Shown: one piece after another, positions 14,621-34,446 of the stretch | Layout of the letters: each line of letters begins with the position of its first letter | Numbering within the stretch: position 1 is the stretch's first letter | Assembly: GCA_030041475.1 (NCBI GenBank) | Contig: JASHNU010000025.1 | Location: forward strand, 1 to 64,000 | From: Candidatus Sulfotelmatobacter sp. | Lineage (GTDB): Bacteria > Acidobacteriota > Terriglobia > Terriglobales > Acidobacteriaceae | Direction of reading: 5' to 3' | Length of the DNA stretch: 64,000 nucleotides | The notes under the pieces: model-generated | Seen by the model: only the letters and a program-made list of their open reading frames with translations | Told to the model about the DNA's origin: nothing | The model's database searches: none | Position numbers and translations under genes: made by a program

Positions 14621-17032
14621 TCACTGCCCACTGACCTGCCTGCCTTCCTTCAACACCGCCTGACAGTTGCTCGCCGCTGTCAGCACTTCGTTGAACGCCG
14701 TTTCTTTGCGCAGATCCTTCAGCAGAGGATCATCCAGCAATGCCGTGTAGGCGCAATAATTCTGTTGTACCGCCGCTTTGAGCAGGCGCAGCGCCGGCTC
14801 GTTCTGCCCGCAGGCCGCCATCAAACCTGCGATGTGATACCACTCCTCAGGATCCAACTCCAGCATGACCGACGATTCTGTCGCGCGCACAATCGTCTGC
14901 AGGTCTGCCGGACGTTGCGCAGCGGTACAGGCCTCCATCAGCGCTTTGTGATACGTCGAGGCCGTCCCCATGTTCTTGGCGGCGGCGCGCGCTTCCGCGA
15001 GTTTGCCTTCGCCCAGATACACATAAGGAGTCACCCAGGCGGCCCACTCCGAACCCGCATCCAGATGCACGAACTCCATGGCCTGGTCCGGCTTATCCAT
15101 CTCCTGGAACGCCCACGCACACGAGCGGAACGCAAAATTCCCCGGATCGAGCGCCCGTGCGGTGTTGCATTCCTGCGTCGACTGCTCCAGCATTCCGGCA
15201 TAACGCAAGACGTAGCTCAATGCATAATGCGCATCTGCGCTTTGCGGACGTCGCTTCACCAGGTCCGTGGCCGCGTCATAGGCCTCTCCCAGCGCGCCCC
15301 GTTCGACCTTCAGCGTGATCAACTGGCTCGCCGCCATTACCCGGTTCGGATCCAGCGTGATTGCCCGCTCGTACGCCGCATTGGCCCGCTGGAAGATCTC
15401 TTCCCCGCCGCCGCCATACTGCGAATCGAAGTAATACCTTTGCCCCAGGGCCTCCCACGCCGGCGCGTAGCTGGGATCGATTCCCACCGCCCACTCCAGC
15501 ATCTTGATGGCTTCCTTGTTCGGCTTGGGGTCGTGCGGCACAGCCACACTGCGCAAATAAAAGTCATAAGCCTGCTGACTCTTCGGCCGCGACGCCGCCG
15601 CTTCCACCGCGCCTCCGCCTCCCAAAGCCGGCAACAACCCGTGCTGCACCTGCGCGCTCAGTTGCTCTTGCAGTCCGATCATGTCTTCAGCCTTGGCCGC
15701 GACCGTGGTCTGCCACAGTAGCTTGTCGCTGGGTACGTCGATCGCTTCCAGCGTCACCAGCAACTGATCGCCCTGCTTACGGAACGATCCCATAATCAGC
15801 CGCCCCACGCGCAATTCCTGCGCCACCTTGTGCGGATCCAGGTCGAGCGCCACGAACTTCCGCGTCACCGACGAAGGCCGCACGTCGAGCGTGCGCGAAT
15901 ACGTCAGCACGCTCGTCAATTCATCGGCCAGGGCGAAGCGCAAATAATCGACGTTGAAGTCCCCGTTCAAGTTCTGAAGCGGCAGAACCGCAATCGCGTT
16001 TTTCTGCTCCGCATTCGCCAGTTCCCGGTGCTTCAGCCACCACGCTCCCACCGACGCCAGCACCGCCACCAGCAGTCCCGCCATGCCCAGCAGCAGATAC
16101 ATCTGAAGCCGCGACGTACTATGCCCAAAAGTCTTGGTCGCGACCCGCAGCTTGGTGGTGGCGCTTCCGCTCTTGATCGTGCCCGACTCGGTTTCCTTCT
16201 TCAGCAGGACCAGATCCGACTTCATCTCCGCCGCACTCTGGTAGCGGTGCGTGCGGTCCTTCTCCATCGCCTTGCCGATGATTCCTTCCAGCTCAATGGG
16301 AATTTTCGGGTTGATCTCGCGCGGCGGTACCGGTTTTGAATGCAGTACCGCGTCGAGCGTCATCAGCGAGTTGCTGCCGGCAAAGGGTTTCTTCCCCGTC
16401 GCCATTTCATACAACACCACGCCGAAGGAAAAAAGATCGCTGCGGGCGTCCACCGTCTCGCTGCGCGCCTGCTCCGGCGACATGTACACCGCCGTCCCGG
16501 GAATCACTCCCACCGCCGTCAGCGAATTATCCGCTCCCGCGTCGTCCTCGGTCCCGAGATTGTGCACCAGCTTCGCCAGCCCGAAGTCGAGAACCTTCAC
16601 CTGCCCGTGCGGCGTCAGGAAAATGTTGGCCGGCTTGATGTCGCGGTGAACAATATTCTTGGCATGCGACGCCACTAGCGCGTCGGCCACCTGCACACCG
16701 ACGTCGAGCACCCTCTCCACATCCATCGGGTGACCGGAAATATGCTGCTTCAGGCTCTCGCCCTCGAGCTTTTCCATCACGATGAACGGATGCCCGTTGT
16801 TATCCTCAATGCCGTGGATCGTGCAGATATTGGGATGGTTGAGTTGCGAGGCCGCCCGCGCCTCGCGCGTAAACCGCTCCAGCGATTTGGGATCGCCGGT
16901 TAGATTTTCTGGAATGAATTTCAGCGCGACGTGTCGCCCTAGCTTCAGGTCCTCAGCCTCATAGACCACGCCCATACCACCGCCCCCAAGCTTGCCCAGA
17001 ACGCGGTAATGGGATACGGTCTGGCCGATCAT
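14621..17032 (-). CDS. Receptor-like Ser/Thr protein kinase with TPR domain
   Basis: 803 residues. An N-terminal Hanks-type kinase (about 8-275) shows '[14 protein letters not shown]' (P-loop), 'VALKFI' (Lys), '[10 protein letters not shown]' (catalytic loop), 'DFGLAK' and 'MSPEQAR'. A single membrane helix lies at about 310-332, so the C-terminal half is probably outside the cytoplasm. That half has a TolB/FlgO-like stretch ('[12 protein letters not shown]', '[10 protein letters not shown]') and then tetratricopeptide repeats. This layout is one of the most abundant kinase types in acidobacteria; the signal and target proteins are not predictable. The ATG at 17032 directly before '[10 protein letters not shown]' is the conserved start. 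Confidence 0.9.
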
Positions 17033-17309
17033 GATGGCGTGCGACCCCGCCCGGCCGTTAATGTTAGGCCGCCGCAGGACTCCGGTCAACTGGCTTGTTT
17101 TCCGGAGCCTAGAGACCACGGCGGTTCAACGTCACGCAGATTGGCCTGCCTCGTCCGGACGTTGCAACCCGGTTTCCCAAACTGGCGCGGCTACGTCCAT
17201 TCGGTAGGATGCCAGATCGCCAGGCGCGGTTTACGCATGAGATTCCGCATTAAGATTGCTATCGATAGTCGTTCCGCCGCACGAGGTTAAACGCACGAAG
17301 TTAAACATC

Positions 17310-17855: not shown

Positions 17856-18488
17856 ATGTTCTATCTGCTCCAGACGCGGACGCGTCGCGCTAGCCCGACC
17901 CTGCTCACGACTCTCCGCCACCTGGGAGCTGCCGGCCTGTTCTTCCTCGCGATTCTCGACAGCTCTCCGCTTCCTACCTTCGGCGGTCCCGACATTCTCA
18001 CCGCCATCTTCGCCGCCAGCCACAGTGCCCTGTGGTATGAGTATGCGGCCACGGCCACGGCCGGCTCTGTCGTCGGCGCCTATCTCACTTACCGCTTGGC
18101 ACGCCAGGCGGGAGCTGCCTACCTCGACCAGAAATTCAGGAAAAGCAATCTGTCGAAGTTCCTGAAGTTTTTTCAGCACTGGGGCACATGCACTCTGGTC
18201 GCCTCCACCATGATTCCTCTGCCCACCCCGACCAGCATGTTCTTCGCCGCAGCCGGCGTTTCTGATTATCCGAAAGGTAGGTTCATCGCCATCGTCGCCG
18301 CCAGCCGCGCCGTGCGCTATTTCACCGTGGCATTTATCGCCGCACACTACGGTCGTCACTTTCTGCGCGTGCTTCGGCACCCCGGCCAGCACTGGGGATG
18401 GATGCTCGTCTTTGCGCTCTCGACTCTTGCCCTGATTGCCGCGGGAATTTTGATCAACCGCCGCCTGGCTGTGGTTCCTGCAGAATGA
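17856..18488 (+). CDS. DedA/VTT-domain membrane protein
   Basis: 210 residues with about five hydrophobic segments. The pattern of a re-entrant loop ('LDSSPLPTFGGPDIL'), 'AGSVVGAYLTYRLARQAG' and 'TMIPLPTPTSMFFAAAG' is that of the VTT (SNARE-associated/DedA) family, inner-membrane proteins now linked to lipid flipping and membrane homeostasis. The acidic and proline residues of the two re-entrant loops are present. It is a single gene, convergent with the M50 protease gene. Which lipid it handles cannot be told. Confidence 0.8.
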   Translation: MFYLLQTRTRRASPTLLTTLRHLGAAGLFFLAILDSSPLPTFGGPDILTAIFAASHSALWYEYAATATAGSVVGAYLTYRLARQAGAAYLDQKFRKSNLSKFLKFFQHWGTCTLVASTMIPLPTPTSMFFAAAGVSDYPKGRFIAIVAASRAVRYFTVAFIAAHYGRHFLRVLRHPGQHWGWMLVFALSTLALIAAGILINRRLAVVPAE

Positions 18489-18545: not shown

Positions 18546-19490
18546 TCACACGCTGCGGCCCATCTGAAATGTACTCGCGTCTGGCGCGCACACTGCCGCC
18601 TCTGCCCATTCGCCCATCGCATGCGTCCGTCCGCAGTCCTGGCACGTCGTCGCCGGATACTGCGTCCCGCATCCCGGACACGCTGCCCGCGTCTCGAACG
18701 TGTCAAACGACCGGCCGCATTGCCCGCATTTCCACAATTCGCCCACCGGCGGCGCCGATCCGCACTCCGGACACACAAATCCATTCCGCCGCGGCAGCTT
18801 CGACATTCGCAGCAGCGCCCGCGCATGTTGCAGCCCGCCCCAGCAGTTCATCAGCATGAAGACCGCGAGAATCGCAAACCATCCTGAATGAACCCACACC
18901 GCTAGCCCAATAAACCCAACCACGCCCACGAAGCCAAGAATGGTCGCCACCAGCAGGCTGCGCGCCCGTCCCAGCGCAAACCACAAGAGCGACCGCAGAA
19001 TCTGCCCACCATCCAGCGGATAGATCGGCAGAATATTGAAGACTAGCAACCACCAGTCAATAGTCCACACCGCCCGCAGCAGCTCATGAACATCAGGCAT
19101 GGTCGTTGCCCAACCCAGCGCGCGGCTCGTCTTGCCCATGGCGTAGATCACCGGCAGCAGCGCCACATTCACCAGCGGCCCAGCGGCGATACTCCACAGC
19201 GTCGCTCCCGGACGCGGCGGCGGGTCCACATACGCCACGCCGCCCAGCGGCCAGAGCACAATCTGGTTCGCCCGCCCTCCCACTTGTCGGCAGGCAAGCG
19301 CGTGCCCAAACTCATGCATGGTGACGATCAGGAACAGCGCCAGAAACTCGGCCACATTCCAGAAGTTGGCAGAGTAGCCACCGATCCCGCCCCGGGACTC
19401 AAACACCGCCCACAGAAACCACGACCAATGCAGATAGAGAGTAATTCCGTTGAAGGTCAGGAGCCGGAAAGCGCCTTGGCGACTGGGCAT
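18546..19490 (-). CDS. Site-2 protease family (M50) with C-terminal zinc ribbons
   Basis: 314 residues with about six membrane segments. The zinc protease motif 'HEFGH' is at 59-63 and the third ligand in 'ILPIYPLDGGQ' near residue 165, both intact. The last 75 residues form four Cys pairs ('CPECG', 'CGQCG', 'CPGCG', 'CQDCG'), a double zinc ribbon on the cytoplasmic side, probably for substrate or partner recognition. Site-2 proteases cut membrane-spanning anti-sigma or signalling proteins; the substrate here is unknown. It lies 214 bp after the ATP-grasp-like gene but beyond its terminator, so it may be a separate unit. Confidence 0.87.
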   Translation of the reverse strand: MPSRQGAFRLLTFNGITLYLHWSWFLWAVFESRGGIGGYSANFWNVAEFLALFLIVTMHEFGHALACRQVGGRANQIVLWPLGGVAYVDPPPRPGATLWSIAAGPLVNVALLPVIYAMGKTSRALGWATTMPDVHELLRAVWTIDWWLLVFNILPIYPLDGGQILRSLLWFALGRARSLLVATILGFVGVVGFIGLAVWVHSGWFAILAVFMLMNCWGGLQHARALLRMSKLPRRNGFVCPECGSAPPVGELWKCGQCGRSFDTFETRAACPGCGTQYPATTCQDCGRTHAMGEWAEAAVCAPDASTFQMGRSV

Positions 19491-19628
19491 GTGCCTGAGT
19501 TATAACACAGCGGGGAGAATGGATTGACGCCTGACCGGGAAGGGCACGGCTCAGACGCATCATTCAGCGCCTGAAATAGTGCGGGCGCCGACCACCGACA
19601 GCAGACACCGCAGCCGCCTGCACTGACC

Positions 19629-19655
19629 GTGGAAGAGCGGCGGTTAGCGCCGCGT
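19629..19655. repeat. Family B repeat (copy 1)
   Basis: 'GTGGAAGAGCGGC' plus a short palindrome ending 'GCCGCGT'. The same 5' arm and closing arm occur at 29576 and 34161. All three copies are intergenic. Confidence 0.6.
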
Positions 19656-19678
19656 AAAGCGTCCAAGAAAGAGCGTTC

Positions 19679-19703
19679 AAGAAGAAAGGGGGCTCTGGCC
19701 CCC
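19679..19703 (-). terminator. Rho-independent terminator after the ATP-grasp-like gene
   Basis: Read on the reverse strand, the stop codon at 19705 is followed at once by GGGGGC-CAGA-GCCCCC and a TTTCTTCTT tract. This ends the transcription unit of the gene that stops at 19705. Confidence 0.75.
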
Positions 19704-19704
19704 G

Positions 19705-20982
19705 TCACTCCACCCACAACGCCGCCGACGCTCCCACCCACGCCATATTCTTGTTGTGATCCACACCCATTTGCAGCCCGCGCCCCATCCGGATAATCGT
19801 TAGCACCGGCTTCAACTCCTCCTGCCAGATGTACATCACCCGTACCTCCGCCTTCGTCCTGCCAAATGGAGTTTCGATCACCGGCTCAAAATGCATCCGC
19901 TCCTGCAAAATGTAATACGGACGTTTCTCCGGCGGAATCGCCGCAATGTCCTCCTTCTTCGGCGCGATCACCACACCCAGCCCGGCAAACGAATACAGCG
20001 GCTTGAGCGCGTAATTCTCCGGATCCGCCGGAATCTCCTGCAGCCGATCCAGAAACCAGGTCTTCGGCACGGACGCATGTTGTAAGTACGGAATCGAAAA
20101 CTTGCTGATGCGGAAATACCAGTTCGGATGTCCCGCCCACTCCACATCCAGCTCATCGCGCCAATCGAAATTCAGTTTGACGTTCTTGCGCTCCAGTTCA
20201 TCCACAATCGCCCGGTTGTAAATGCGCCGGATGGGCACCCGCTTCCCGTCGCGCTCGTAATAAAGCCGCGATCCTTCCTTCTTAATACTGACAATGTCCA
20301 CCGCCCGCACGCCCAGCATCTTCTCCGTCAGCAGAAAATCCGGGAGCGTCTTCTGATGCAGCGGATCGGTCTCCATCAGAACCACGTTCTCTGGATCATG
20401 CGATCCCACAATCGCCCGCCGCAACAGTTGCCGATAAGAGTCCGCATCAAGCCCGCCGAGAAAATACTTCGGCCCACAACCGACCGGCCCATCTCTTTCC
20501 GATGTCATTCCGAACCGCTCCGAAGGGGCGGTGAGGAACCTGCTTTTGTCTGGATGCCATCCCAGTTTCCGCAGGCCATACACGTCGATGTACGCCTCCG
20601 CCAGCGGCCCCTGATACGCATAAAGAGAAGGAAAGGCCTGCAACTCCACGAGCTTCGGCTGCAACTCACCGTGCGCGTCGCGAACCAGTCCGAAATCCAC
20701 CTGCACAAACATCGGGTGCGCCGCCTCATTCGGCACCCTGAATTCCGCCGGCACCGCCTCGTCCGATTTCTTGCGGTACTCCGGATTCTCGACAAGTTGC
20801 CGGATCAACTCCTCTCCATCGCGCACCAGGCGGTCAATCAACTCCTTGGGGAAGAAGCACGGCGTCTCCGATAACCGGAACTGCACGTGCGTCCCGCACG
20901 CGTCATCAATCCGCCGCAGGAATGCCTGATATTTTTCGGGAGTGAAACTCGCGTTGAACTGCTTGCGAAGAGAGGGAATCAT
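19705..20982 (-). CDS. ATP-grasp-like conserved protein of the amide-ligase cluster
   Basis: 425 residues. I do not recognise a named family, but the C-terminal half looks like an ATP-grasp ligase: 'NYALKPLYSFAGLGVVIAP' gives a nucleotide-binding lysine and flexible glycine loop, 'YYILQERM' a hinge and 'KAEVRVMYI' a later strand. The N-terminal half ('LVELQAFPSLYAYQGPLAEAY') is conserved in character but unassigned. No signal or membrane segment is seen. ATG at 20982 is taken; a GTG two codons upstream is possible. It is downstream of the M29 and GCS2 genes, 173 bp away. A short stretch of the protein ('FLTAPSERFGMTSER') is encoded by a dispersed repeat. A role as an amide or peptide ligase is inference. 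Confidence 0.6.
   Translation of the reverse strand: MIPSLRKQFNASFTPEKYQAFLRRIDDACGTHVQFRLSETPCFFPKELIDRLVRDGEELIRQLVENPEYRKKSDEAVPAEFRVPNEAAHPMFVQVDFGLVRDAHGELQPKLVELQAFPSLYAYQGPLAEAYIDVYGLRKLGWHPDKSRFLTAPSERFGMTSERDGPVGCGPKYFLGGLDADSYRQLLRRAIVGSHDPENVVLMETDPLHQKTLPDFLLTEKMLGVRAVDIVSIKKEGSRLYYERDGKRVPIRRIYNRAIVDELERKNVKLNFDWRDELDVEWAGHPNWYFRISKFSIPYLQHASVPKTWFLDRLQEIPADPENYALKPLYSFAGLGVVIAPKKEDIAAIPPEKRPYYILQERMHFEPVIETPFGRTKAEVRVMYIWQEELKPVLTIIRMGRGLQMGVDHNKNMAWVGASAALWVE
20504..20547 (+). repeat. Family A repeat inside the ATP-grasp-like gene
   Basis: 'GTCATTCCGAACCGCTCC' to 'GAGGAACCTGCTTTT' matches the intergenic element seen at 21022, 23456, 25020 and (inverted) 35449. It lies in frame within the coding sequence of the gene at 19705-20982 and adds about 15 residues without a stop. 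Confidence 0.65.
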
Positions 20983-21021
20983 GATCACCGACTCAGATTA
21001 CGGCGATCATTCTACGCGATT

Positions 21022-21087
21022 GTCATTCTGAGCGAAGAAAAGCGCTCACAAAAAATGAGCGCTTTTCGCAGTCGGAGAATCCCTGCC
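21022..21087. repeat. Family A repeat with 12-bp hairpin, M29/ATP-grasp intergenic
   Basis: Begins 'GTCATTCTGAGCGAAG' and ends 'GGAGAATCCCTGC'. The centre is a hairpin GAAAAGCGCTCA / TGAGCGCTTTTC around 21036-21066 with loop CAAAAAA. It could also act as a weak transcription end or mRNA-stability element between the M29 and ATP-grasp-like genes. Confidence 0.55.
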
Positions 21088-21154
21088 CTGTGCTTAAATG
21101 TTTGCTTTCCTCACAAAACTTTGAAACTTCGCCACTTTGTCACCCTGGAACCCT

Positions 21155-22201
21155 TTACACTTCCACCAGAAACTTCCCCTCACTCATAATCTGGTGGTCA
21201 TCGACCCAGATGTTGAACTTCCGTCCCACCACATCAATATGCGTGGTTGAGTCCCACTCCGCGCCGGTGTGCGCGCCGTAGGGATTTCCAAACGCAATAT
21301 GCACGCCAGGATATTTCTCATCCTGCAGAATCTGTCCGATCACATTTTTCAAATCAATGTTGGTCCCTATCGCGAACTCGCCCACGCGGTCGCTGTTCTC
21401 GTCGGTATGCGTGTATTTCCAGAAATCATTTTCCAGTTCCCGATTTTCCGAATGCGCCTCGGTCAGCCGGTTGCTCTTCATCCGTACTGTCAGCGGATTT
21501 TCCTCGAGGTTGCCGAACTTCGCGCAAAGATAATCGCCGACCACCCCGTCAATCACAAACGTGCCGTTCACCTCGCCCGGGGTAGTAAAAATTTCTCCGC
21601 CCGGCAGATTGCCCCACTTTTCCGGCGAAATAATTCCGCTCGTCTTCAGCCACTTGTAATTTGGATTCAGCGTCGCAGTCAGGTCCGTGCCCGCCGCAGT
21701 TGTCGCGCGCACCTTCTTCGCCTTCCGCACCATCTCCACCACTTTCTGACTGAGCCGGTCCACGCGCCCGAAATCCGCCCGCATGCCTTCCAGCATGATC
21801 TGCCGGTTGATGTTGACCATGTGCGCATGCCGGATCTTGCGCCGGTTCACCACGTCTGTCATCTGAATGCGCGTCCGCAATTCGTTCCGCTGCGCCTGCA
21901 CTGCGAAGATCGAAACCCGCGAAATTTCCAGGTGATCGAGAATCTCCCGCGGCAAATCCGTCAGGGGACGCTTCGCCACTTCCTCGAGCACCCAGGCGCG
22001 ATACGGAGCCCCCACTTTTTCAAGTTCGGCCACAATCGCCGCCGCGATTTCAATGGTCGCCAGATCGGTAATCACGCACACGCGTTCGCTGCGCTGCACG
22101 CGCAGACAGACATTTACAGCGTTGTTTGCACCAGGGGTATACTCCGGATCGAAGGGAAGTTCTCTCAGATCGATGTGGCCAGACTTATCAGAAATGCTCA
22201 T
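21155..22201 (-). CDS. M29-type metallopeptidase (aminopeptidase T-like)
   Basis: 348 residues resembling family M29 thermophilic metalloproteases, which are cytoplasmic dimetal aminopeptidases. The probable ligands are all present: Glu in 'LPGGEIFTTP', Glu in 'RVGEFAIGTN', the strand 'DEKYPGVHIAFGN' with its His, and 'STTHIDVVG' with His and Asp. The N-terminal half is the usual helical/Rossmann-like region. It starts at the stop of the upstream ligase gene in a TAATG overlap, so the two are translationally coupled. A peptidase coupled to an amide ligase suggests trimming or turnover of the product; this is inference. It could also be a general aminopeptidase. Confidence 0.82.
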   Translation of the reverse strand: MSISDKSGHIDLRELPFDPEYTPGANNAVNVCLRVQRSERVCVITDLATIEIAAAIVAELEKVGAPYRAWVLEEVAKRPLTDLPREILDHLEISRVSIFAVQAQRNELRTRIQMTDVVNRRKIRHAHMVNINRQIMLEGMRADFGRVDRLSQKVVEMVRKAKKVRATTAAGTDLTATLNPNYKWLKTSGIISPEKWGNLPGGEIFTTPGEVNGTFVIDGVVGDYLCAKFGNLEENPLTVRMKSNRLTEAHSENRELENDFWKYTHTDENSDRVGEFAIGTNIDLKNVIGQILQDEKYPGVHIAFGNPYGAHTGAEWDSTTHIDVVGRKFNIWVDDHQIMSEGKFLVEV

Positions 22202-23337
22202 TACCCAACTTTCTCGAGCGAAGCGGGCTCTTCCACCAACCCTGCTTCAGTCTCTTCAATAATGTAATCGACTACTTTTTTCAAATCTCCAGTCTCCTGG
22301 AACAGGCGCAGCTGCCGGTCCGCGCCGCTGCCCGTTTCCAAAATCCTTCGGATGTAATTCAACTCCTCGCGCGAGCCCAACTCGTCCACAACATCGTCCA
22401 CAAAATCCAGGTACTCATTGATCAGGTCGCGCGTCGGAACTTCCTTCTGCTTGCCGAAATCAATCAGCTTTCCGTTCAGTCCGTACCGCGACGCCCGCCA
22501 CTTGTTCTCCATGATCAGCGCCCGCCGATACAGCCGGAATCCCTGATTCGCGGCATACAGCTTGTACAACTTGGCCACTGTCGCCTGAATCAGCGCCGCC
22601 AGTGCGATCGTCTCGTCGGCACGCATGGGAATGTCGCACACTCGAAATTCGATTGTGTTGAAGAAGGGATGCGGCCGGATGTCCCACCAGATCTTTTTCG
22701 CGTTATCAATGCAGTTGGTCTTGATCAGCAGCTTGATGAAGTTTTCGTACTCGCCCCAGCTCGGAAAATAATCCGGAATATTCGTCCGCGGAAACTTGTC
22801 GAACACCTTGCAGCGGTACGACTTCAGCCCAGTGTTCATCCCAAGCCAGAACGGCGAATTGGTTGAGAGCGCCAGAATGTGCGGCAGAAAATACCGCGCA
22901 TGATTCATCATATGGATCGCGGTCTCGCGATCCTCAATTCCGATGTGCACATGCAGTCCAAAAATCAGGTTCGCCCGCGCCACCAGCTGCATGTCCTCGA
23001 CAATATTCTTGTACCGATCGTCGGGATAAATTTCCTGCACCTTCCAGTCCGCAAACGGATGCGTCGCCACCGACGCCACCCGCAGACCGCTTTCCCGTGC
23101 CAGGCGGATGATGTGCCGCCGCAGCTCCTTCACCTCGGCCTTGGCTTCCTTGATGTTCTTGCAAATCCCCGTCCCGACTTCCACCACCGACTGATGCAGC
23201 TCCGCCTTCACCCGCTCCTGTAGCACCATCTTGCCGCGCTCGAGCAGCTCCGCCTGGATATGCGAACGCAGATCCCGCGTGACCGGATCGATCGTCTGAT
23301 ATTCCTCTTCAATCCCGATGGTAAATGTCGGCAGCAT
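22201..23337 (-). CDS. Carboxylate-amine ligase, GCS2 (YbdK-like)
   Basis: 378 residues of the glutamate-cysteine ligase type 2 family within the glutamine-synthetase-like ligase fold. Motifs: 'IGIEEEYQTIDP' (metal Glu residues) at residues 7-18, 'GLHVHIGIEDRE' in the middle, and 'IEFRVCDIPMRADE' near the C-terminus. The family joins a carboxylate, often glutamate, to an amine with ATP; E. coli YbdK has weak glutamate-cysteine ligase activity. The actual substrates are unknown. It is coupled by TAATG to the M29 gene and is preceded by a small membrane-protein gene and an ATP-grasp ligase gene, so a two-step peptide-like product is possible. Confidence 0.87.
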   Translation of the reverse strand: MLPTFTIGIEEEYQTIDPVTRDLRSHIQAELLERGKMVLQERVKAELHQSVVEVGTGICKNIKEAKAEVKELRRHIIRLARESGLRVASVATHPFADWKVQEIYPDDRYKNIVEDMQLVARANLIFGLHVHIGIEDRETAIHMMNHARYFLPHILALSTNSPFWLGMNTGLKSYRCKVFDKFPRTNIPDYFPSWGEYENFIKLLIKTNCIDNAKKIWWDIRPHPFFNTIEFRVCDIPMRADETIALAALIQATVAKLYKLYAANQGFRLYRRALIMENKWRASRYGLNGKLIDFGKQKEVPTRDLINEYLDFVDDVVDELGSREELNYIRRILETGSGADRQLRLFQETGDLKKVVDYIIEETEAGLVEEPASLEKVG

Positions 23338-23667
23338 AAAGACTCATGTCGGGACAGCCGCCCTCCGTCGGGGTCCCCGGCGCGCCCGGTTTTGGCGTGA
23401 CGGGGTGATCAGCTGTCCGGCCGAGCGAAGCTCGGCAGCAATCTGACGTACGGTTGTCATTCCGAGCGGAGCGAGGAATCTGCTGTCCGCCGGTCAGAAC
23501 TAGGCCTTAACAGTATATCAACGATAGAAAGAAGACCGGCCCAATCCGTGCCTGCGGTTACCTTCGTTTTGCGCCACGCGGGCCGCCTGGTTTTCTGGAC
23601 CACCGTCTGCGGACGATCAGATGCCATCCGTGACTTGCGAGGCGATCTTTTCTTCAAAGCCCTAGCG
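23338..23667. other. Intergenic, 330 bp with repeat elements
   Basis: No coding sequence is supported here. The stretch holds a small hairpin CCGAGC-GAA-GCTCGG at 23421-23435 and a family A repeat ('GTCATTCCGAGCGGAGCGAG') at 23456-23487. The leader of the GCS2 gene must begin in this interval or be read through from upstream; no convincing promoter was seen. Confidence 0.6.
23456..23487. repeat. Family A repeat (intergenic copy before GCS2 gene)
   Basis: 'GTCATTCCGAGCGGAGCGAG' then 'GAATCTGCT', the cleanest copy of the family A element in the window. Confidence 0.65.
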
Positions 23668-24009
23668 TCACCTTCTCAGCAGCCACGCGGACCGTGCAAA
23701 AAAGACCATCAGGACAAGCATCAATCCGCTCATGGCGATCGTCGCCACACCGACGACGTTCCTGAAGAAGTTGTTGCGCGAAAAACTTCGCCACAACCAG
23801 ACAATCGCCACAAGCTGGCTGGTGAGCAAGGTCGCGACTCCCCACAGAACAAGCATCTCAGCAAACCCGCCCGTGACCGCAGCCAGTCCAGTCGCCTTTG
23901 CCGTCCACATGTCTCGGAGCACGTAGCCAAACTCGATCAAAGTGGCGACCCAAGGCGCCCAAGCCAGTAACACAGCCCACCAGAATCGTGCGCTCGGTTG
24001 CTCATTCAC
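23668..24009 (-). CDS. Small three-helix membrane protein
   Basis: 113 residues, not recognised. Hydrophobic segments at about 9-28, 44-68 and 84-107 suggest three membrane helices with basic loops. The GTG start at 24009 lies 6 bp after the stop of the ATP-grasp ligase, so it belongs to the same unit, although no strong ribosome-binding site is visible. It may be a membrane partner or exporter component for the cluster, but nothing in the sequence proves this. Confidence 0.6.
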   Translation of the reverse strand: MNEQPSARFWWAVLLAWAPWVATLIEFGYVLRDMWTAKATGLAAVTGGFAEMLVLWGVATLLTSQLVAIVWLWRSFSRNNFFRNVVGVATIAMSGLMLVLMVFFARSAWLLRR

Positions 24010-24015
24010 GGACGT

Positions 24016-24999
24016 CTATGCCTTCGATCTTTTTCTCGCGGCGACCTTGGGAAGCGGAGCATCCCCGCCCGCCAGAAACTCCGCCCACCGCATCTCCTTC
24101 ACCGGACTCTCCCCGCTCGTCGCCAGTTTCACCGACATCTCTGCGACGGCATTCACAATCCAGTCGAAATTCTCCTGCCCTACCGACGTAATCTCCGCAT
24201 CCGGCGCCGGATTCAGAAAGTCAATCGCATAGGGCACACCGCCCTCCACCGCAAACTCCACCGTGTTCAAGTCGTACCCCAGCGCACGGCACAAAGCCAC
24301 TGCATCTTTTTCGATTCTGCCCCTCAAAGCCTCCGTAGACGGCGGCGGGTTCCCCTTCACGTAGCGCTCATGATGCGGCGCCTTCGGATCGTACTTCATG
24401 ATGTGCACCTTCTCCTGCCCCACCACATAGCAGCGGTAATACTCGTCAAACTCCACGCCGTGCTGCAGCGTCATGCACAAGTCACCTGTCTGGTTGTAGT
24501 GATGAAAGAATTCCTCTGGCGAATGCACCTTGTACACATGCTTCCATCCGCCGCCGGAATACGGCTTCAGGAACGCCGGAAAGCCGACATAGTCGAAAAG
24601 CTCCTGCCAGTTCAGCGGATAAATCAGATTCCGCATGGACTTGTCCGTTGTGTCCGGAGGATGCTTGTGGTGCGGCAGAACCACCGTCGGCGGAATGGCC
24701 ACGCCCATCTTGTGCGCCAGCGAATAATTGAAGAACTTGTCGTCAGCCGTCCACCAGAACGGATTGTTCACCACAATCGTCCCGTGCAGCACGGCGTTCT
24801 TCAACCACGCGCGATAAAACGGAATGTCCTGCGAAATCCGGTCGATCACGACGGCATACTTCTTCGGCTCATCCATCCGGATGCCGCCGATCTTCACAAA
24901 CTCCGCCTCAACGCCGTCGACCTTCATCGCGTTGATCTTCTCCACCACGGCGGGCGGAAACGTGTTCTCCATGCCAAACAACAGCCCAATCTTTTTCAT
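24016..24999 (-). CDS. ATP-grasp ligase (D-Ala-D-Ala ligase/RimK-like)
   Basis: 327 residues. 'MKKIGLLFGMENTFP' begins the pre-ATP-grasp domain. 'YVGFPAFLKPYSGGGWKHVY' holds the ATP-binding Lys and Gly-rich loop, 'LMTLQ'-like hinge is 'DLCMTLQHGVEF', and 'VEFAVEGGVPYAIDFLNPAPD' gives the Glu/Asp/Asn metal ligands of the ATP-grasp core. Such enzymes form amide bonds through acyl-phosphates. The substrate is unknown. A clear ribosome-binding site (AAGGTGGAG) precedes the ATG. The gene lies between the esterase and the small membrane-protein genes, all on the reverse strand, with a family A repeat in the gap to the esterase. Confidence 0.85.
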   Translation of the reverse strand: MKKIGLLFGMENTFPPAVVEKINAMKVDGVEAEFVKIGGIRMDEPKKYAVVIDRISQDIPFYRAWLKNAVLHGTIVVNNPFWWTADDKFFNYSLAHKMGVAIPPTVVLPHHKHPPDTTDKSMRNLIYPLNWQELFDYVGFPAFLKPYSGGGWKHVYKVHSPEEFFHHYNQTGDLCMTLQHGVEFDEYYRCYVVGQEKVHIMKYDPKAPHHERYVKGNPPPSTEALRGRIEKDAVALCRALGYDLNTVEFAVEGGVPYAIDFLNPAPDAEITSVGQENFDWIVNAVAEMSVKLATSGESPVKEMRWAEFLAGGDAPLPKVAARKRSKA

Positions 25000-25019
25000 T
25001 GCAACTCCACCTTCATGTT

Positions 25020-25056
25020 GTCATTCCGAGCGGCTTGAGCCGAGGAATCCGCTTTT
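25020..25056. repeat. Family A repeat (esterase/ATP-grasp gap)
   Basis: 'GTCATTCCGAGCGGCTTGAG' to 'GAGGAATCCGCTTTT', with a small inner palindrome CGGCTTGAGCCG. Confidence 0.65.
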
Positions 25057-25101
25057 AGCTGCGCAGTGCGACAAGCCTTACTAACGGGGCACGACTAACG
25101 A

Positions 25102-25812
25102 CTAGAAGTACTTCCCCGCCATCCTCTGCCACAGCGGCCAGTCATGCTTCGAATGATCGCCCCACACATCCAGCCAGTGCGGAATCGCCTTCGCGTTCAG
25201 CATCGCCGAAAACTTGATGTTCTGATCCAGGCACATATCCCAATCCGCCGATCCCAGCACGAGCTTCATCTGCCGGTAGCGGCTCAGAAACCAGTCATCG
25301 GACAAATTCGGCACGTAGTCCGGAGGATTATTGAAGTAGCAATTGTCGTCGTAATATCCGTCTAGAAATTGCTTGATGTCGAACGACCCGCTCATGCTCA
25401 CGCAATGCGTCACCACATCCGGATGTTTCAGCGCGAAATTCACGCAGTGATATCCGCCAAAACTGCAGCCCGTCACCGCCAGCTGCCACGCCGGATTCTT
25501 CCACCGGACGAAAGGAAGGAATTCGTGCAGAATGTGGCGCTCGTACTGCAAATGCCGCAGTACCCTCACCCACGGATGCACGCTCCGGTTGTACCAGCTC
25601 TCCAAATCCACGCCGTCGGGGCAGAACACCTGCAGCTCGCCGCGCTCGATCTTCGGCGCGAGTACACCAATCATGCCCCGGTCTTCGTACTCGAAAAACT
25701 TCCCCATGGAAGTGGGGAACACCAGCAGGGGCATGCCGGCATGGCCGAACACCAGCGCCTCCATCTCACGATGCAGTTCCTGGCTGTATCCCTTGTGATA
25801 TTCGCGATTCAT
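25102..25812 (-). CDS. Alpha/beta-hydrolase esterase (esterase D-like)
   Basis: 236 residues of the putative esterase family (PF00756 type). The nucleophile elbow is 'GCSFGGYH' (GxSxG), an Asp candidate follows 'VLGSADWDMC', and the catalytic His is in 'WGDHSKHDWPLW'. 'MPLLVFPTSMGKFFEYED' is the oxyanion-strand region. No signal peptide, so it is probably cytoplasmic. The ATG at 25812 has a GGGAAAAAAG site and overlaps the end of the upstream membrane-protein gene by 47 bp. Within the cluster it may release or hydrolyse an ester or thioester of the product; that is inference. Confidence 0.85.
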   Translation of the reverse strand: MNREYHKGYSQELHREMEALVFGHAGMPLLVFPTSMGKFFEYEDRGMIGVLAPKIERGELQVFCPDGVDLESWYNRSVHPWVRVLRHLQYERHILHEFLPFVRWKNPAWQLAVTGCSFGGYHCVNFALKHPDVVTHCVSMSGSFDIKQFLDGYYDDNCYFNNPPDYVPNLSDDWFLSRYRQMKLVLGSADWDMCLDQNIKFSAMLNAKAIPHWLDVWGDHSKHDWPLWQRMAGKYF

Positions 25813-26449
25813 TTCTTTTTTCCCGGCGTTTATCCAGGCGCACAAACTCCTCAAGAAACGCGACGCACACGACTGCCGCCGTCGTCAGCGACGCGAACAT
25901 AGCGGGTCGCGGGCAACAACCCCTCCACCTCAGAACGGCATCCACCAGCGGAAAGAACCACGCCCCAAGCACGGGAGCATAAATCAGTGACAACCCAATG
26001 TCATGCTTAATGAGCACAAACCCCAGCAATCTGAAGCTGGCTTTAACGCGGCTCTTAAAATTCAATAACGGTGGCGAAAACCTGTCTTCGAGTTCATGGC
26101 CTCGCCGTATCAGAAGCTCGTAGAGTTCGCTGTTGCGCAGATCGTAGACGGTCACGCCCAGCGTAGCCAGAAAACCCAGAGACGAGAGTAAACCAACAAG
26201 CGCGTAGTCGAAAGCTGCTGCGTCTGCAACCGAAGAAGCAGATCCAACCGCGTCGGCGGAGTGCGCCGCAATCAGCTTCGACAACAACGTCACCGCCGCT
26301 CCGCTGAGTGCAGGAACCAGTGCGAGGAGCTTGAATCGAATCTCAGCCAGCATTCGATAGTTGCTGTTGATCTGGTCGTATTCCGCCTTCCACTCCTCCG
26401 AGTAGCCGATCGGATGCGCTGTGCCCCTGCCCATGGTGACTTCAGGCAT
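25766..26449 (-). CDS. Four-helix membrane protein of unknown function
   Basis: 227 residues, not recognised. Hydrophobic segments lie at about 42-64, 80-102, 138-168 (long, perhaps two) and 184-204; the N-terminal 40 residues are soluble and the tail is highly charged. The ATG at 26449 is preferred because a perfect GGAGG stands 5 bases before it, over a TTG four codons upstream. Its 3' end overlaps the esterase gene by 47 bp, which suggests co-expression. It may be the first gene of the reverse-strand cluster. Confidence 0.6.
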   Translation of the reverse strand: MPEVTMGRGTAHPIGYSEEWKAEYDQINSNYRMLAEIRFKLLALVPALSGAAVTLLSKLIAAHSADAVGSASSVADAAAFDYALVGLLSSLGFLATLGVTVYDLRNSELYELLIRRGHELEDRFSPPLLNFKSRVKASFRLLGFVLIKHDIGLSLIYAPVLGAWFFPLVDAVLRWRGCCPRPAMFASLTTAAVVCVAFLEEFVRLDKRREKRNESRISQGIQPGTAS

Positions 26450-26800
26450 ACAAGCCTCCAATCAATCCAACGAAAGAGCCTGCCGAAAGCCGGTCTATAG
26501 TTTCCGGATACTCTGGTCCTTGAACAAGGTAAGTGCTCATGCACCACAGCCGGAGTATCTTACCCGATCGGTGCGATCAAGCGCGCAAAGGCTGGTGCCC
26601 GGAATACAAAACAAAAGGCCTGCTCGTTCCGAAAGCAGGCCGTTATGCAAGCTAGGCTCTGTTCGAGGCAGGCGGCTCGGGCTAACGCCGCCGGAACACC
26701 GCCGTGGAAGCCGGAAATGCCAGGTTTTCCGGGTACACGCCGACCCTCACGGTCTGCGCCGCCCTTCCGGAACAGCCACAAAACCGTGGTTCTCCCCGCG
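26450..26800. other. Intergenic, 351 bp
   Basis: No gene is supported. It includes a hairpin GGCCTGCT / AGCAGGCC around 26614-26639 which, read on the reverse strand, is followed by TTTTGTTTTG and so is a good terminator for a reverse-strand gene further right, such as the 29-residue ORF at 26801. Confidence 0.6.
26606..26640 (-). terminator. Rho-independent terminator (reverse strand)
   Basis: On the reverse strand: GGCCTGCTTT-CGGAACG-AGCAGGCC followed by TTTTGTTTTG. It would end transcription arriving from higher coordinates. Confidence 0.65.
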
Positions 26801-27002: not shown

Positions 27003-27782
27003 TCAGGGTTTCGTCGATCCCGCCGCTGTTTTCCGCTTGTACCCCGTCAGCTTGACGGTCTCGCGGATGTGCACCGACTGGGCGCGAAAATGCAGCGTGT
27101 CATCCACGCGCGCATAGGCTGGAAACCAGTATCCATCCACCAGCTGCCGGTAACTTACAAATGTCGGCCGCAGCTCCTGCGGCCCTTTCTTCTTCTTTGG
27201 CGCATCCGGTATGCTCTTGCCGCACACTTTCACGATCTCGAAGTCGCGATTGTCCACCCACACCTTGCCTTCAAAATACCGTTTGTTTTTTTCCGGCTTC
27301 TTGGCGACGATGTGAAACAGATAAGTATCCAGGTCATCTACATGCTGTTGGCCGGAGTACGTCAGGTTGTACTGCGGCAGGTCTTCCGTGGTGAGAATCA
27401 GCGGCATGAAGGTGCGGATGTCCTCCATGTCTTCCTCTGACAACTGCACCCCGCGCAGCGTCGACTGCTCGGCGAAAGTCACGAGTTCCGTGCGCTTTCC
27501 TTTGTCGTCGTAAGAAACCGTGGCGACTTCGTGAAACTGCCCGTCGACAGTGATGTCGCTGAGCGTCTGCACCAGCACATCCTGTATGAAGCTGTAATGC
27601 GTGCGCGCTTCTTTGACTTTCGTTTCCTGCGCCGCAAACTTCTGGATGATCTGCTCCGGCGTAATATCCTTCGGTGGCGACGTGTCAAGATCGCCATTGC
27701 CGGCGGAGCAGTCGGTCTGTGCCGCCGCACTCGCGGCCACGATTAGAAGCGCAGTGACCACGGCCGCCAGCTTCATTGCCAT
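27003..27782 (-). CDS. Secreted lipoprotein-sorting-like protein
   Basis: 259 residues with a signal peptide ('LAAVVTALLIVAASAAAQ'). The body reads as the LolA/LolB-like beta-sheet group common in acidobacteria: 'FAAQETKVKEARTHYSF', 'RYFEGKVWVDNRDFEIVKV' and 'YRQLVDGYWFPAYAR' are typical strands of 'outer membrane lipoprotein-sorting protein' homologues. It should act in the periplasm, perhaps binding a lipid. Starts at 27782 and 27776 are both possible; both retain the signal peptide. It is a single gene. Confidence 0.7.
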   Translation of the reverse strand: MAMKLAAVVTALLIVAASAAAQTDCSAGNGDLDTSPPKDITPEQIIQKFAAQETKVKEARTHYSFIQDVLVQTLSDITVDGQFHEVATVSYDDKGKRTELVTFAEQSTLRGVQLSEEDMEDIRTFMPLILTTEDLPQYNLTYSGQQHVDDLDTYLFHIVAKKPEKNKRYFEGKVWVDNRDFEIVKVCGKSIPDAPKKKKGPQELRPTFVSYRQLVDGYWFPAYARVDDTLHFRAQSVHIRETVKLTGYKRKTAAGSTKP

Positions 27783-28108
27783 TCGTGTTCCGTTTCGGTT
27801 CGCCTCAGCATTGCCCACAATCATGTCGCTCGCTCCGTCTCGAGCCCGCAACCGAAACATACAACCGCACGTGCAGCCTGCGCAAACGCCACTGGGATGG
27901 TCACCGCCTGCGGCACTTGTCGCAGGCTCCCCGCGGAAAGGCAGAGCCCCCGCCCGGCGCGGCTTTTCGCCCGATTTCCCCTCATTCCCTAAATGTGCAA
28001 AGTGTTGCGCCCTGCTTCATGTATTGCTTGTAAGATTAAGAAAATAAATAGCTCTAGATTGGTACAGGGGTTGCACTTGTAGGTTGTGAAATCAAGGTGA
28101 CAAACGCT
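27783..28108. other. Divergent intergenic region, 326 bp
   Basis: No gene is supported. A hairpin GCCTGCG / CGCAGGC spans 27906-27927. The promoters of the two diverging genes must lie here; the A/T-rich stretch at about 28025-28060 is the likely place for the forward one, but no clear -35/-10 pair could be fixed. Confidence 0.5.
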
Positions 28109-34230: not shown

Positions 34231-34446
34231 TGGGTCCCCGCGCACCCCAAACCCAGCCGCGCAGCGGCGACATACGACAGCCCGGGGCGCAAGCCCCGGG
34301 TCGACAGAAGAGAAACAGAACCGAGTCCCGTAGGGACGGCAGAAAATTGCTCGCGTATATTTGTCTAATATCTCAGCGGTGTACTATTCGCAACGATGAA
34401 CCTCAGCGTCACGATCCGCTATCGACCTCTTCGCATCGGGTGGCAC

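What the first reader, a model, noticed from the sequence alone, without database searches (positions are those of the whole stretch)
18546..26449. Reverse-strand cluster joining two ATP-grasp-type ligases, a GCS2 ligase, a coupled M29 peptidase and an esterase
Seen: on one strand lie a membrane protein, esterase, ATP-grasp ligase, small membrane protein, GCS2 ligase, M29 metallopeptidase and an ATP-grasp-like protein, with overlaps (47 bp; TAATG) and 6-bp spacings. Established: GCS2 and ATP-grasp enzymes form amide bonds through acyl-phosphates, and comparative work on amidoligases has linked such ligases with peptidases in conserved neighbourhoods. Inferred: an undescribed pathway for a non-ribosomal amide or peptide metabolite, with the peptidase and esterase trimming or releasing the product. 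Which metabolite is unknown. The M50 gene after the terminator may be unrelated.
Basis: partly seen in the sequence, partly recalled or inferred. Interest (0 to 1): 0.78.

Follow-up and report, generated by a model that had tools for sequence, protein, structure and literature searches.

The report
Uncharacterised three-ligase peptide-building gene cluster
A soil acidobacterium carries a conserved set of genes (three bond-forming enzymes plus a peptidase and an esterase) that probably builds a small peptide-like molecule whose identity is not known.

Summary
In detail: on the minus strand lie EST, AGL1 (ATP-grasp), TM113, GCS2, M29 and AGL2, with the stated overlaps. Of 56 related loci with at least 4.5 kb past AGL1, 49 keep AGL1-GCS2-M29-AGL2 in order. 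In 31 sampled genomes of the window's family, GCS2, M29 and AGL2 occur in the same 16 and are missing from the same 15, although AGL2 lies over 30 kb from M29, or on another contig, in 8 of the 16. Candidate catalytic residues are conserved. AGL2 matches no Pfam or NCBIfam model but is predicted to have the eukaryotic glutathione-synthetase fold; AGL1 has the Ddl/LysX/RimK fold. TM231 and M50 are not core; a Ser/Thr kinase outside the coordinates follows the unit in 31 of 47 loci. Best reading: an uncharacterised non-ribosomal pathway building a small, perhaps gamma-glutamyl, peptide or amide, with EST and M29 as processing enzymes. Product unknown; transcripts untested. Ligase-peptidase neighbourhoods were predicted before (Iyer 2009, not readable here), so I call it a new variant of a known kind.

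The parts
25102..25812 (-). EST: alpha/beta hydrolase of the Esterase family; ORF open to 25854, homologues start at MNREY (25812)
   Evidence: PF00756 30.7 bits, cut-off 22; S131, D206, H237 (numbering of the ORF from 25854) in 70 of 70; upstream of AGL1 in 64 of 71 loci
24016..24999 (-). AGL1: ATP-grasp ligase of the Ddl/LysX/RimK fold
   Evidence: No Pfam match; rimK_fam 27.7 bits, cut-off 143.4; AF2 mean pLDDT 91.0; Foldseek Ddl/LysX/RimK E 9e-14 to 2e-12 in the 50 rows shown; K145, Q179, E248, D260, N263 in 78 of 78
23668..24009 (-). TM113: small protein, membrane-like by eye; local accessory
   Evidence: 6 bp after AGL1; found in 9 of 56 related loci, median 43% identity over 14 hits
22201..23337 (-). 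GCS2: carboxylate-amine ligase (YbdK/PRK13515 type)
   Evidence: NF010039 555 bits, cut-off 371; PF04107 216 bits, cut-off 21; G-h-E-x-E motif GIEEE in 66 of 67, one row gapped
21155..22201 (-). M29: divergent M29-type metallopeptidase
   Evidence: PF02073 62 bits, cut-off 27; E203, E275, H301, H321, D323 in 60 of 60; TAATG junction with GCS2; only PF02073 match in the genome
19705..20988 (-). AGL2: ATP-grasp ligase of the glutathione-synthetase fold; ORF opens at GTG, likely ATG two codons in
   Evidence: No Pfam/NCBIfam match at E 0.01; AF2 mean pLDDT 91.3; Foldseek 1m0w, 8fbz, 2hgs E 9e-14 to 8e-13, TM about 0.5-0.6; D98, E115, Q117, K329, G338, R400 in 52 of 52
19688..19703 (-). terminator-like stem-loop with T-rich tail after AGL2
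   Evidence: 6 G-C pairs, tail TTTCTTCTTG; consensus match only
14621..17119 (-).
   Evidence: PF00069 159 bits; same-strand match downstream of AGL2 in 31 of 47 loci: 11 within 126 bp, 11 at 0.47-0.65 kb, 9 at 1.4-3.8 kb, by extrapolated starts
18546..19490 (-). M50-type metalloprotease; not part of the conserved unit
   Evidence: PF02163 62 bits; found in 2 of 56 related loci
25766..26461 (-). TM231: ORF overlapping the start of EST, membrane-like by eye; not conserved
   Evidence: no family match; found in 0 of 80 related loci

Best explanation
The unit encodes a non-ribosomal pathway that assembles a small peptide or amide from amino acids or amines, using three ligases of families that work through acyl-phosphates made from ATP. 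Proposed order (inferred): GCS2 makes a gamma-glutamyl (or similar) amide; AGL2, of the glutathione-synthetase fold, extends it; AGL1, a Ddl/LysX/RimK-type ATP-grasp, adds a further residue or caps it. EST hydrolyses an ester or thioester of the product or a precursor. M29 removes N-terminal residues, for maturation or recycling. The Ser/Thr kinase downstream may regulate the unit. Shown here: gene content, conservation, co-occurrence, conserved candidate catalytic residues, predicted folds. Inferred: reaction order, substrates, roles of EST and M29, regulation and co-transcription.
For: Order AGL1-GCS2-M29-AGL2 in 49 of 56 loci and EST upstream in 64 of 71. In 297 phylum genomes: AGL1 in 88, EST in 88, both in 85 (Fisher p 1e-66, not corrected for phylogeny); 36 of 37 AGL2 genomes have AGL1; contrast: AGL2 and its relative c5 are not associated, p 0.65. 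In 31 family-f1 genomes the same 16 carry GCS2, M29 and AGL2; the trio changes state at least 6 times on an rpoB tree of 30 of them; AGL2 lies over 30 kb from M29 or on another contig in 8 of the 16 (places). Candidate catalytic residues conserved among close relatives. The 14 PDB matches of AGL2 at E up to 0.001 are glutathione synthetases, YgiC, YjfC, glutathionylspermidine synthetase, a putative one (3n6x), Cp1B and nematode glutathione-synthetase-like effectors; Cp1B makes an amide from a diacid and an amino acid (PMC12568646, passages). AGL1's matches are Ddl, LysX/ArgX, RimK and macrocyclase MdnC (50 rows seen). No precursor-like small ORF among the 14 largest clusters of gap ORFs.
Against: No substrate, product or expression data. 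The tree-aware pair test gives only p 0.0625 for the trio, with 5 pairs whose agreement follows from the identical sets; trio versus AGL1 agrees in 3.7 of 5 (p 0.125) and AGL1 versus EST in 4.6 of 5 (p 0.0625). EST and AGL1 occur without the trio in 4 f1 genomes and EST alone in 2; 4 of 56 loci lack the downstream trio, so there may be two modules. G151 has M29 and AGL2 without AGL1; 19 genomes have GCS2 without AGL1; c5 occurs in 10 genomes without AGL1; 16 AGL1 genomes have neither AGL2 nor c5. The 330- and 166-bp gaps leave room for extra promoters. AGL2's structural matches have low identity (11-16%) and rmsd of 6-12.
Confidence: 0.55

Rival explanations
1. Glutathione-like pathway (a special case of the best explanation): GCS2 makes a gamma-glutamyl dipeptide, perhaps gamma-Glu-Cys, and AGL2 completes a glutathione-like tripeptide, so the unit makes a new low-molecular-weight thiol or analogue, with EST acting like S-formylglutathione hydrolase.
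For: AGL2's best structural matches are eukaryotic glutathione synthetases; GCS2 also scores against glutamate--cysteine ligase models, though under their cut-offs; GshA (PF04262) and GshB (PF02955) have no match in the genome; the EST profile matches one chain named S-formylglutathione hydrolase, E 2e-4.
Against: BshC (bacillithiol) is found in 39 of 41 family genomes including the window's own, so a thiol pathway probably already exists. AGL2 is 12-14% identical to the glutathione synthetases listed and has Q117 where I recall an Asn in them. Polyamine ligases match too. EST matches several other esterases better.
Confidence: 0.18
2. Tagging: the ligases add amino acids to a protein or surface polymer (as RimK and LysX do), and M29/EST remove or edit the tag.
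For: AGL1 resembles RimK and LysX/ArgX in fold, which act on proteins (recall, and the LysW and RpsF complexes named there); a peptidase is linked to the ligases.
Against: No carrier-like small ORF among the 14 largest clusters of gap ORFs, though a carrier could lie elsewhere. Three ligases and an esterase are more than RimK-type tagging needs (recall).
Confidence: 0.15
3. Amine or amide utilisation: the ligases gamma-glutamylate amines and M29/EST break the conjugates down for nitrogen or carbon.
For: Some GS-fold ligases gamma-glutamylate amines (recall); M29 and EST are hydrolases with conserved sites.
Against: No oxidase or uptake gene was recognised as a recurrent direct neighbour in the 54 loci clustered: ABC-ATPase-type genes (cluster c7, one member Pfam-tested) occur in 9 of 54, and in the five of these with a called AGL1 they lie at least 2.5 kb from it; an isocitrate/isopropylmalate dehydrogenase follows AGL1 in only 2 (L128, L139). 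Most neighbour clusters were not annotated. Three ligases are not needed for this (inference).
Confidence: 0.1
4. No single pathway: EST-AGL1 and GCS2-M29-AGL2 are separate modules that sit together.
For: EST+AGL1 without the trio in 4 of 31 f1 genomes; EST beside an annotated ATP-grasp gene on Peptoclostridium and Pararhizobium plasmids.
Against: In f1 the trio never occurs without EST and AGL1 (16 of 16), and 65 of the 72 genomes with AGL1 plus AGL2 or c5 have GCS2.
Confidence: 0.1

Closest known systems
Glutathione biosynthesis (glutamate-cysteine ligase + glutathione synthetase)
   Same: A GCS2-family ligase next to a ligase with the glutathione-synthetase fold
   Different: Third ligase, M29 and EST added; no GshA/GshB family match in the genome; substrates unknown; AGL2 matches no Pfam or NCBIfam family
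Amidoligase neighbourhoods of Iyer et al. 2009 (10.1039/b917682a; not held, abstract recalled)
   Same: Links among ATP-grasp and GS-fold ligases and peptidases in conserved neighbourhoods
   Different: Whether this gene set is listed there could not be checked; the permuted ATP-grasp/GS/NTN-peptidase system of its abstract is not this one
NRPS-independent pseudopeptide pathway of E-64 with ligase Cp1B (PMC12568646, passages seen)
   Same: A free-standing ATP-grasp, among AGL2's structural matches, makes an amide bond on a small acid
   Different: Fungal; the second ligase is an ANL-family enzyme; no GCS2, M29 or EST mentioned in the passages I saw
RimK / LysX ligases
   Same: Fold of AGL1
   Different: No carrier-protein partner seen; AGL1 is far under the rimK_fam cut-off

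Membership tests
GCS2/YbdK carboxylate-amine ligases | score above NF010039 curated cut-off | tested here: met
   555 vs 371 bits
GCS2/YbdK carboxylate-amine ligases | GhExE signature (as given in PMC2588565, passages) | tested here: met
   GIEEE in 66 of 67, one row gapped
GCS2/YbdK carboxylate-amine ligases | gamma-glutamyl-amide forming activity | not testable with these tools
   needs enzyme assay
M29 metallopeptidases | score above Pfam cut-off | tested here: met
   62 vs 27 bits, stretch 159-311 only
M29 metallopeptidases | five metal ligands (positions recalled) | tested here: met
   E203, E275, H301, H321, D323 in 60 of 60; first three align to E, E, H of AmpS, the HxD pair to H, D of NicX
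M29 metallopeptidases | aminopeptidase activity rather than NicX-like oxygenase | tested here: inconclusive
   profile matches AmpS E 1e-6 and NicX E 4e-4; NicX has Phe at the E203 place in that alignment
Ddl/LysX/RimK-type ATP-grasp (AGL1) | fold | tested here: met
   Foldseek E about 1e-13, TM about 0.6
Ddl/LysX/RimK-type ATP-grasp (AGL1) | family model above cut-off | tested here: not met
   rimK_fam 27.7 vs 143.4 bits; no Pfam match
Glutathione synthetase (AGL2) | fold | tested here: met
   1m0w, 8fbz, 2hgs E 9e-14 to 8e-13, TM about 0.5-0.6
Glutathione synthetase (AGL2) | family model match | tested here: not met
   0 Pfam and 0 NCBIfam matches at E 0.01
Glutathione biosynthesis in this genome | GshA (PF04262) and GshB (PF02955) present | tested here: not met
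   0 matches each in G000; the GshA search rings in 2 and the GshB search in 9 of 14 control genomes
Graspetide-type RiPP | precursor peptide gene in the cluster | tested here: not met
   the 14 largest clusters of gap ORFs (20-130 aa) are, by my reading, gene starts, TM113, the kinase start, and antisense or out-of-frame copies; smaller clusters not inspected
Permuted ATP-grasp / GS ligase / NTN-peptidase system (recalled) | NTN-hydrolase peptidase and alpha-helical domain genes in the unit | tested here: not met
   none among the Pfam matches of the ten proteins scanned
Known anti-phage defence systems | PADLOC model match | tested here: not met
   0 matches for 7 proteins at E 0.01

The most novel reading that the evidence does not exclude
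Acidobacteriota without detectable canonical glutathione genes (shown for the window's genome) make a glutathione-like gamma-glutamyl peptide by a separate route: a GCS2 ligase plus a bacterial ligase with the eukaryotic glutathione-synthetase fold, extended by a third ligase and serviced by a dedicated M29 peptidase and esterase, in parallel with bacillithiol.
Probability: 0.18. Interest if true: 0.8.

Novelty: new variant of a known kind. Interest (0 to 1): 0.5.

Why it matters
A five-enzyme set kept together across much of a large soil lineage points to a metabolite that matters to these poorly understood bacteria. Two of the three ligases have no Pfam match, and all three can be tried with purified enzymes, so the product can be sought directly. 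If it proves glutathione-like, it would change the picture of thiol or gamma-glutamyl chemistry in Acidobacteriota.

Tried and rejected
Anti-phage defence: no PADLOC match for 7 proteins. Graspetide/RiPP: no precursor-like ORF among the 14 largest gap-ORF clusters. TM231 and M50 as members: not conserved. Plasmids: AGL1 and AGL2 gave no match; EST gave 16 records, of which I opened five: two show an annotated ATP-grasp gene beside it, one does not, two have no gene table; one of the two ATP-grasps was compared with AGL1 and is only remotely alike. GCS2 gave 70 records; the two opened show no ATP-grasp or M29 neighbour. Literature: listings seen (20 of 48 papers; 0; 20 of 79; 25 of 65; 10 of 10; 8 of 8), and passages, gave no description of this gene set; the most relevant paper (Iyer 2009) is not held, so I do not claim absence from print. 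Bacillithiol: BshC in 39 of 41 family genomes weakens the new-thiol reading. Promoter scan uninformative (5 found, 3.8 expected). My simple gene caller was rough on GC-rich DNA and was used only to find recurrent neighbours.

Thresholds were mine, and the genome sets were typed by hand: AGL1 E up to 1e-30 (88 of 112 matched genomes kept), EST up to 2e-26 (88 of 93), GCS2 over 400 bits (90 of 96), M29 over 270 bits (23 of 97), AGL2 over 200 bits (37 of 40), c5 over 120 bits (51 of 76). Dropped: AGL1 matches at E 7e-6 and weaker (carboxylase-like by my reading), AGL2 fragments or weak matches in G132, G134 and G213, M29 paralogues and the G134 M29 remnant, and weaker GCS2, EST and c5 matches. 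The tree used 30 of the 31 f1 genomes (G000 left out because at most 30 loci are returned; G084 stands for its genus). Structures were predicted for AGL1 and AGL2 only.
Full report
What is there. The minus strand of 19,705-25,812 encodes, in transcription order, EST (alpha/beta hydrolase), AGL1 (ATP-grasp), TM113 (small protein, membrane-like by eye), GCS2 (carboxylate-amine ligase), M29 (metallopeptidase) and AGL2 (ATP-grasp) (the ATP-grasp nature of AGL1 and AGL2 rests). Consensus scans gave promoters at the chance level (5, 3.8 expected) and terminators mildly above it (16, 9.7 +/- 3.0 expected), one of them right after AGL2. Transcripts were not testable.

Is it more than a chance neighbourhood? 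Of 71 with 1.6 kb upstream, 64 have EST within 1.6 kb upstream; of 56 with 4.5 kb downstream, 49 have GCS2, M29 and AGL2 in that order, 3 were scored with two of them and 4 with none. In L067, one of the three, GCS2 was missed by the rule only because its match overlaps that of AGL1 by about 40 bp. Median identities to the window are 79% EST, 81% AGL1, 84% GCS2, 78% M29 and 64% AGL2. TM231 was found in 0 of 80, M50 in 2 of 56 and TM113 in 9 of 56.

Co-occurrence. Five proteins were searched in the same 297 genomes of the phylum, and a distant AGL2 relative, c5, in a sixth search. With the thresholds given under Tried and rejected, AGL1 is in 88, EST in 88, both in 85; AGL2 in 37, of which 36 have AGL1; GCS2 in 90, of which 71 have AGL1; M29 in 23, of which 21 have AGL2. 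AGL2 and c5 are not associated (5 of 37, p 0.65), and 72 of 88 AGL1 genomes have one or the other, which fits replacement; but c5 also occurs in 10 genomes without AGL1, and 16 AGL1 genomes have neither. Fisher values (down to 1e-66) ignore phylogeny. Within family f1, GCS2, M29 and AGL2 occur in exactly the same 16 of 31 genomes; AGL1 in those and 4 more; EST in those 20 and 2 more. On an rpoB tree of 30 of them the trio changes state at least 6 times; pair tests give 5 of 5 for the trio (by construction, as its three sets are identical; p 0.0625), 3.7 of 5 for trio versus AGL1 (p 0.125) and 4.6 of 5 for AGL1 versus EST (p 0.0625), with no pair going the other way. Loss as one block could explain this where the genes are adjacent, but in 8 of the 16 (G094, G103, G139, G155, G163, G233, G241, G281) AGL2 lies over 30 kb from M29 or on another contig (places).

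The enzymes. GCS2 scores far above the PRK13515 cut-off and keeps the GhExE signature (signature from passages of PMC2588565). M29 keeps five candidate metal ligands in 60 of 60 close relatives; its profile is nearest to aminopeptidase AmpS and second to the NicX oxygenase, so peptidase function is likely but not certain. It is the genome's only PF02073 match. EST keeps a Ser-Asp-His set in 70 of 70. AGL1 and AGL2 were modelled with family alignments at mean pLDDT 91.0 and 91.3. AGL2's 14 PDB matches at E up to 0.001 are yeast and human glutathione synthetase, YgiC, YjfC, nematode glutathione-synthetase-like effectors, glutathionylspermidine synthetase, 3n6x and Cp1B, at 11-16% identity and rmsd of 6-12. 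AGL1's are D-Ala-D-Ala ligases, LysX/ArgX, RimK and macrocyclase MdnC (50 rows seen). Of two c5 proteins scanned, one passes the cut-off of a circularly permuted ATP-grasp model (PF04174, 27.1 vs 23.1 bits) and one does not.

How it most likely works. Three ligases of acyl-phosphate type, kept together with two hydrolases and with no precursor-like ORF seen, fit a stepwise non-ribosomal assembly of a small peptide or amide. I propose GCS2 first, AGL2 as extender, AGL1 as second extender or cap, EST as hydrolase of an ester or thioester form, and M29 for maturation or recycling. Only gene content, conservation, co-occurrence, residues and folds are shown; order and substrates are inference. A glutathione-like product is the boldest form: the window's genome has no GshA or GshB family match, but BshC is nearly universal in the family (39 of 41), which weakens the case for a new main thiol.

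Outside the given coordinates. A Ser/Thr kinase with TPR-like repeats (14,621-17,119) lies downstream on the same strand. A same-strand match to it follows AGL2 in 31 of 47 loci with at least 1.5 kb after AGL2: 11 within 126 bp (L031 and L036 by long extrapolation), 11 at 0.47-0.65 kb and 9 at 1.4-3.8 kb; 16 have none in the 2-4.7 kb seen. Acidobacteria carry many such kinases (recall), so orthology rests on position and identity (50-97%) alone. In the window M50, a convergent VTT-domain gene and another plus-strand ORF lie between. A regulatory role is inference.

A second arrangement. In eight loci holding AGL1 relatives of about 30% identity (L111-L118), seven carry a gene of one cluster (c8; S51-peptidase model at 23.5 and 25.0 bits in the two members scanned, cut-off 23.9) and seven a gene of another (c4; Esterase family in both of the members scanned from these loci). 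Members of c4 also lie beside the unit, on the opposite strand to EST, in L063 and L066. Again an ATP-grasp sits with a peptidase-like gene and an esterase, which supports the theme.

Novelty. The kind, clustered amidoligases with peptidases, was predicted in 2009 (abstract recalled; paper not held). My searches found no description of this set in what I saw, but the library lacks most subscription papers, so I do not claim it is unpublished. I call it a new variant of a known kind, interest 0.5.

Noticed in passing
14621-17119: Ser/Thr kinase with TPR-like repeats; a same-strand match follows AGL2 in 31 of 47 related loci, so it is probably linked to the unit.
   Followed up: partly
17856-18488: VTT-domain protein convergent to the unit, also matched in L004, L005, L007 and L010; a gene of the same cluster lies just upstream of AGL1 in L128 (Pfam-tested) and L139.
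   Followed up: partly
L128:7989-9038 and L139:8713-9741: An isocitrate/isopropylmalate dehydrogenase gene directly follows AGL1 in these two loci.
   Followed up: partly
27003-27860: LolA-like (below cut-off) gene upstream of the unit, matched in 12 of the 80 related loci.
   Followed up: no
34255-34300: Acido-Lenti-1 RNA, 50.5 bits, gathering score 37.
   Followed up: no
G134:C7 around 67468-67930 and G151:C33 around 196716-198910: Two genomes of one genus: G151 keeps M29 and AGL2 without AGL1, G134 shows only fragments of both, one with a stop codon; the unit may be decaying there.
   Followed up: no
L111-L118: A different arrangement: distant AGL1 relatives (about 415-470 aa) near an S51-like gene (7 of 8) and an Esterase-family gene (7 of 8).
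   Followed up: partly
L063:6147-7019 and L066:6117-6980: A second Esterase-family gene lies upstream of EST on the opposite strand.
   Followed up: no
L152:6803-8768 and L153:6873-8801: EST homologue next to an ATP-grasp (PF13535) gene on plasmids of Peptoclostridium and Pararhizobium, so the pairing is not confined to Acidobacteriota.
   Followed up: partly
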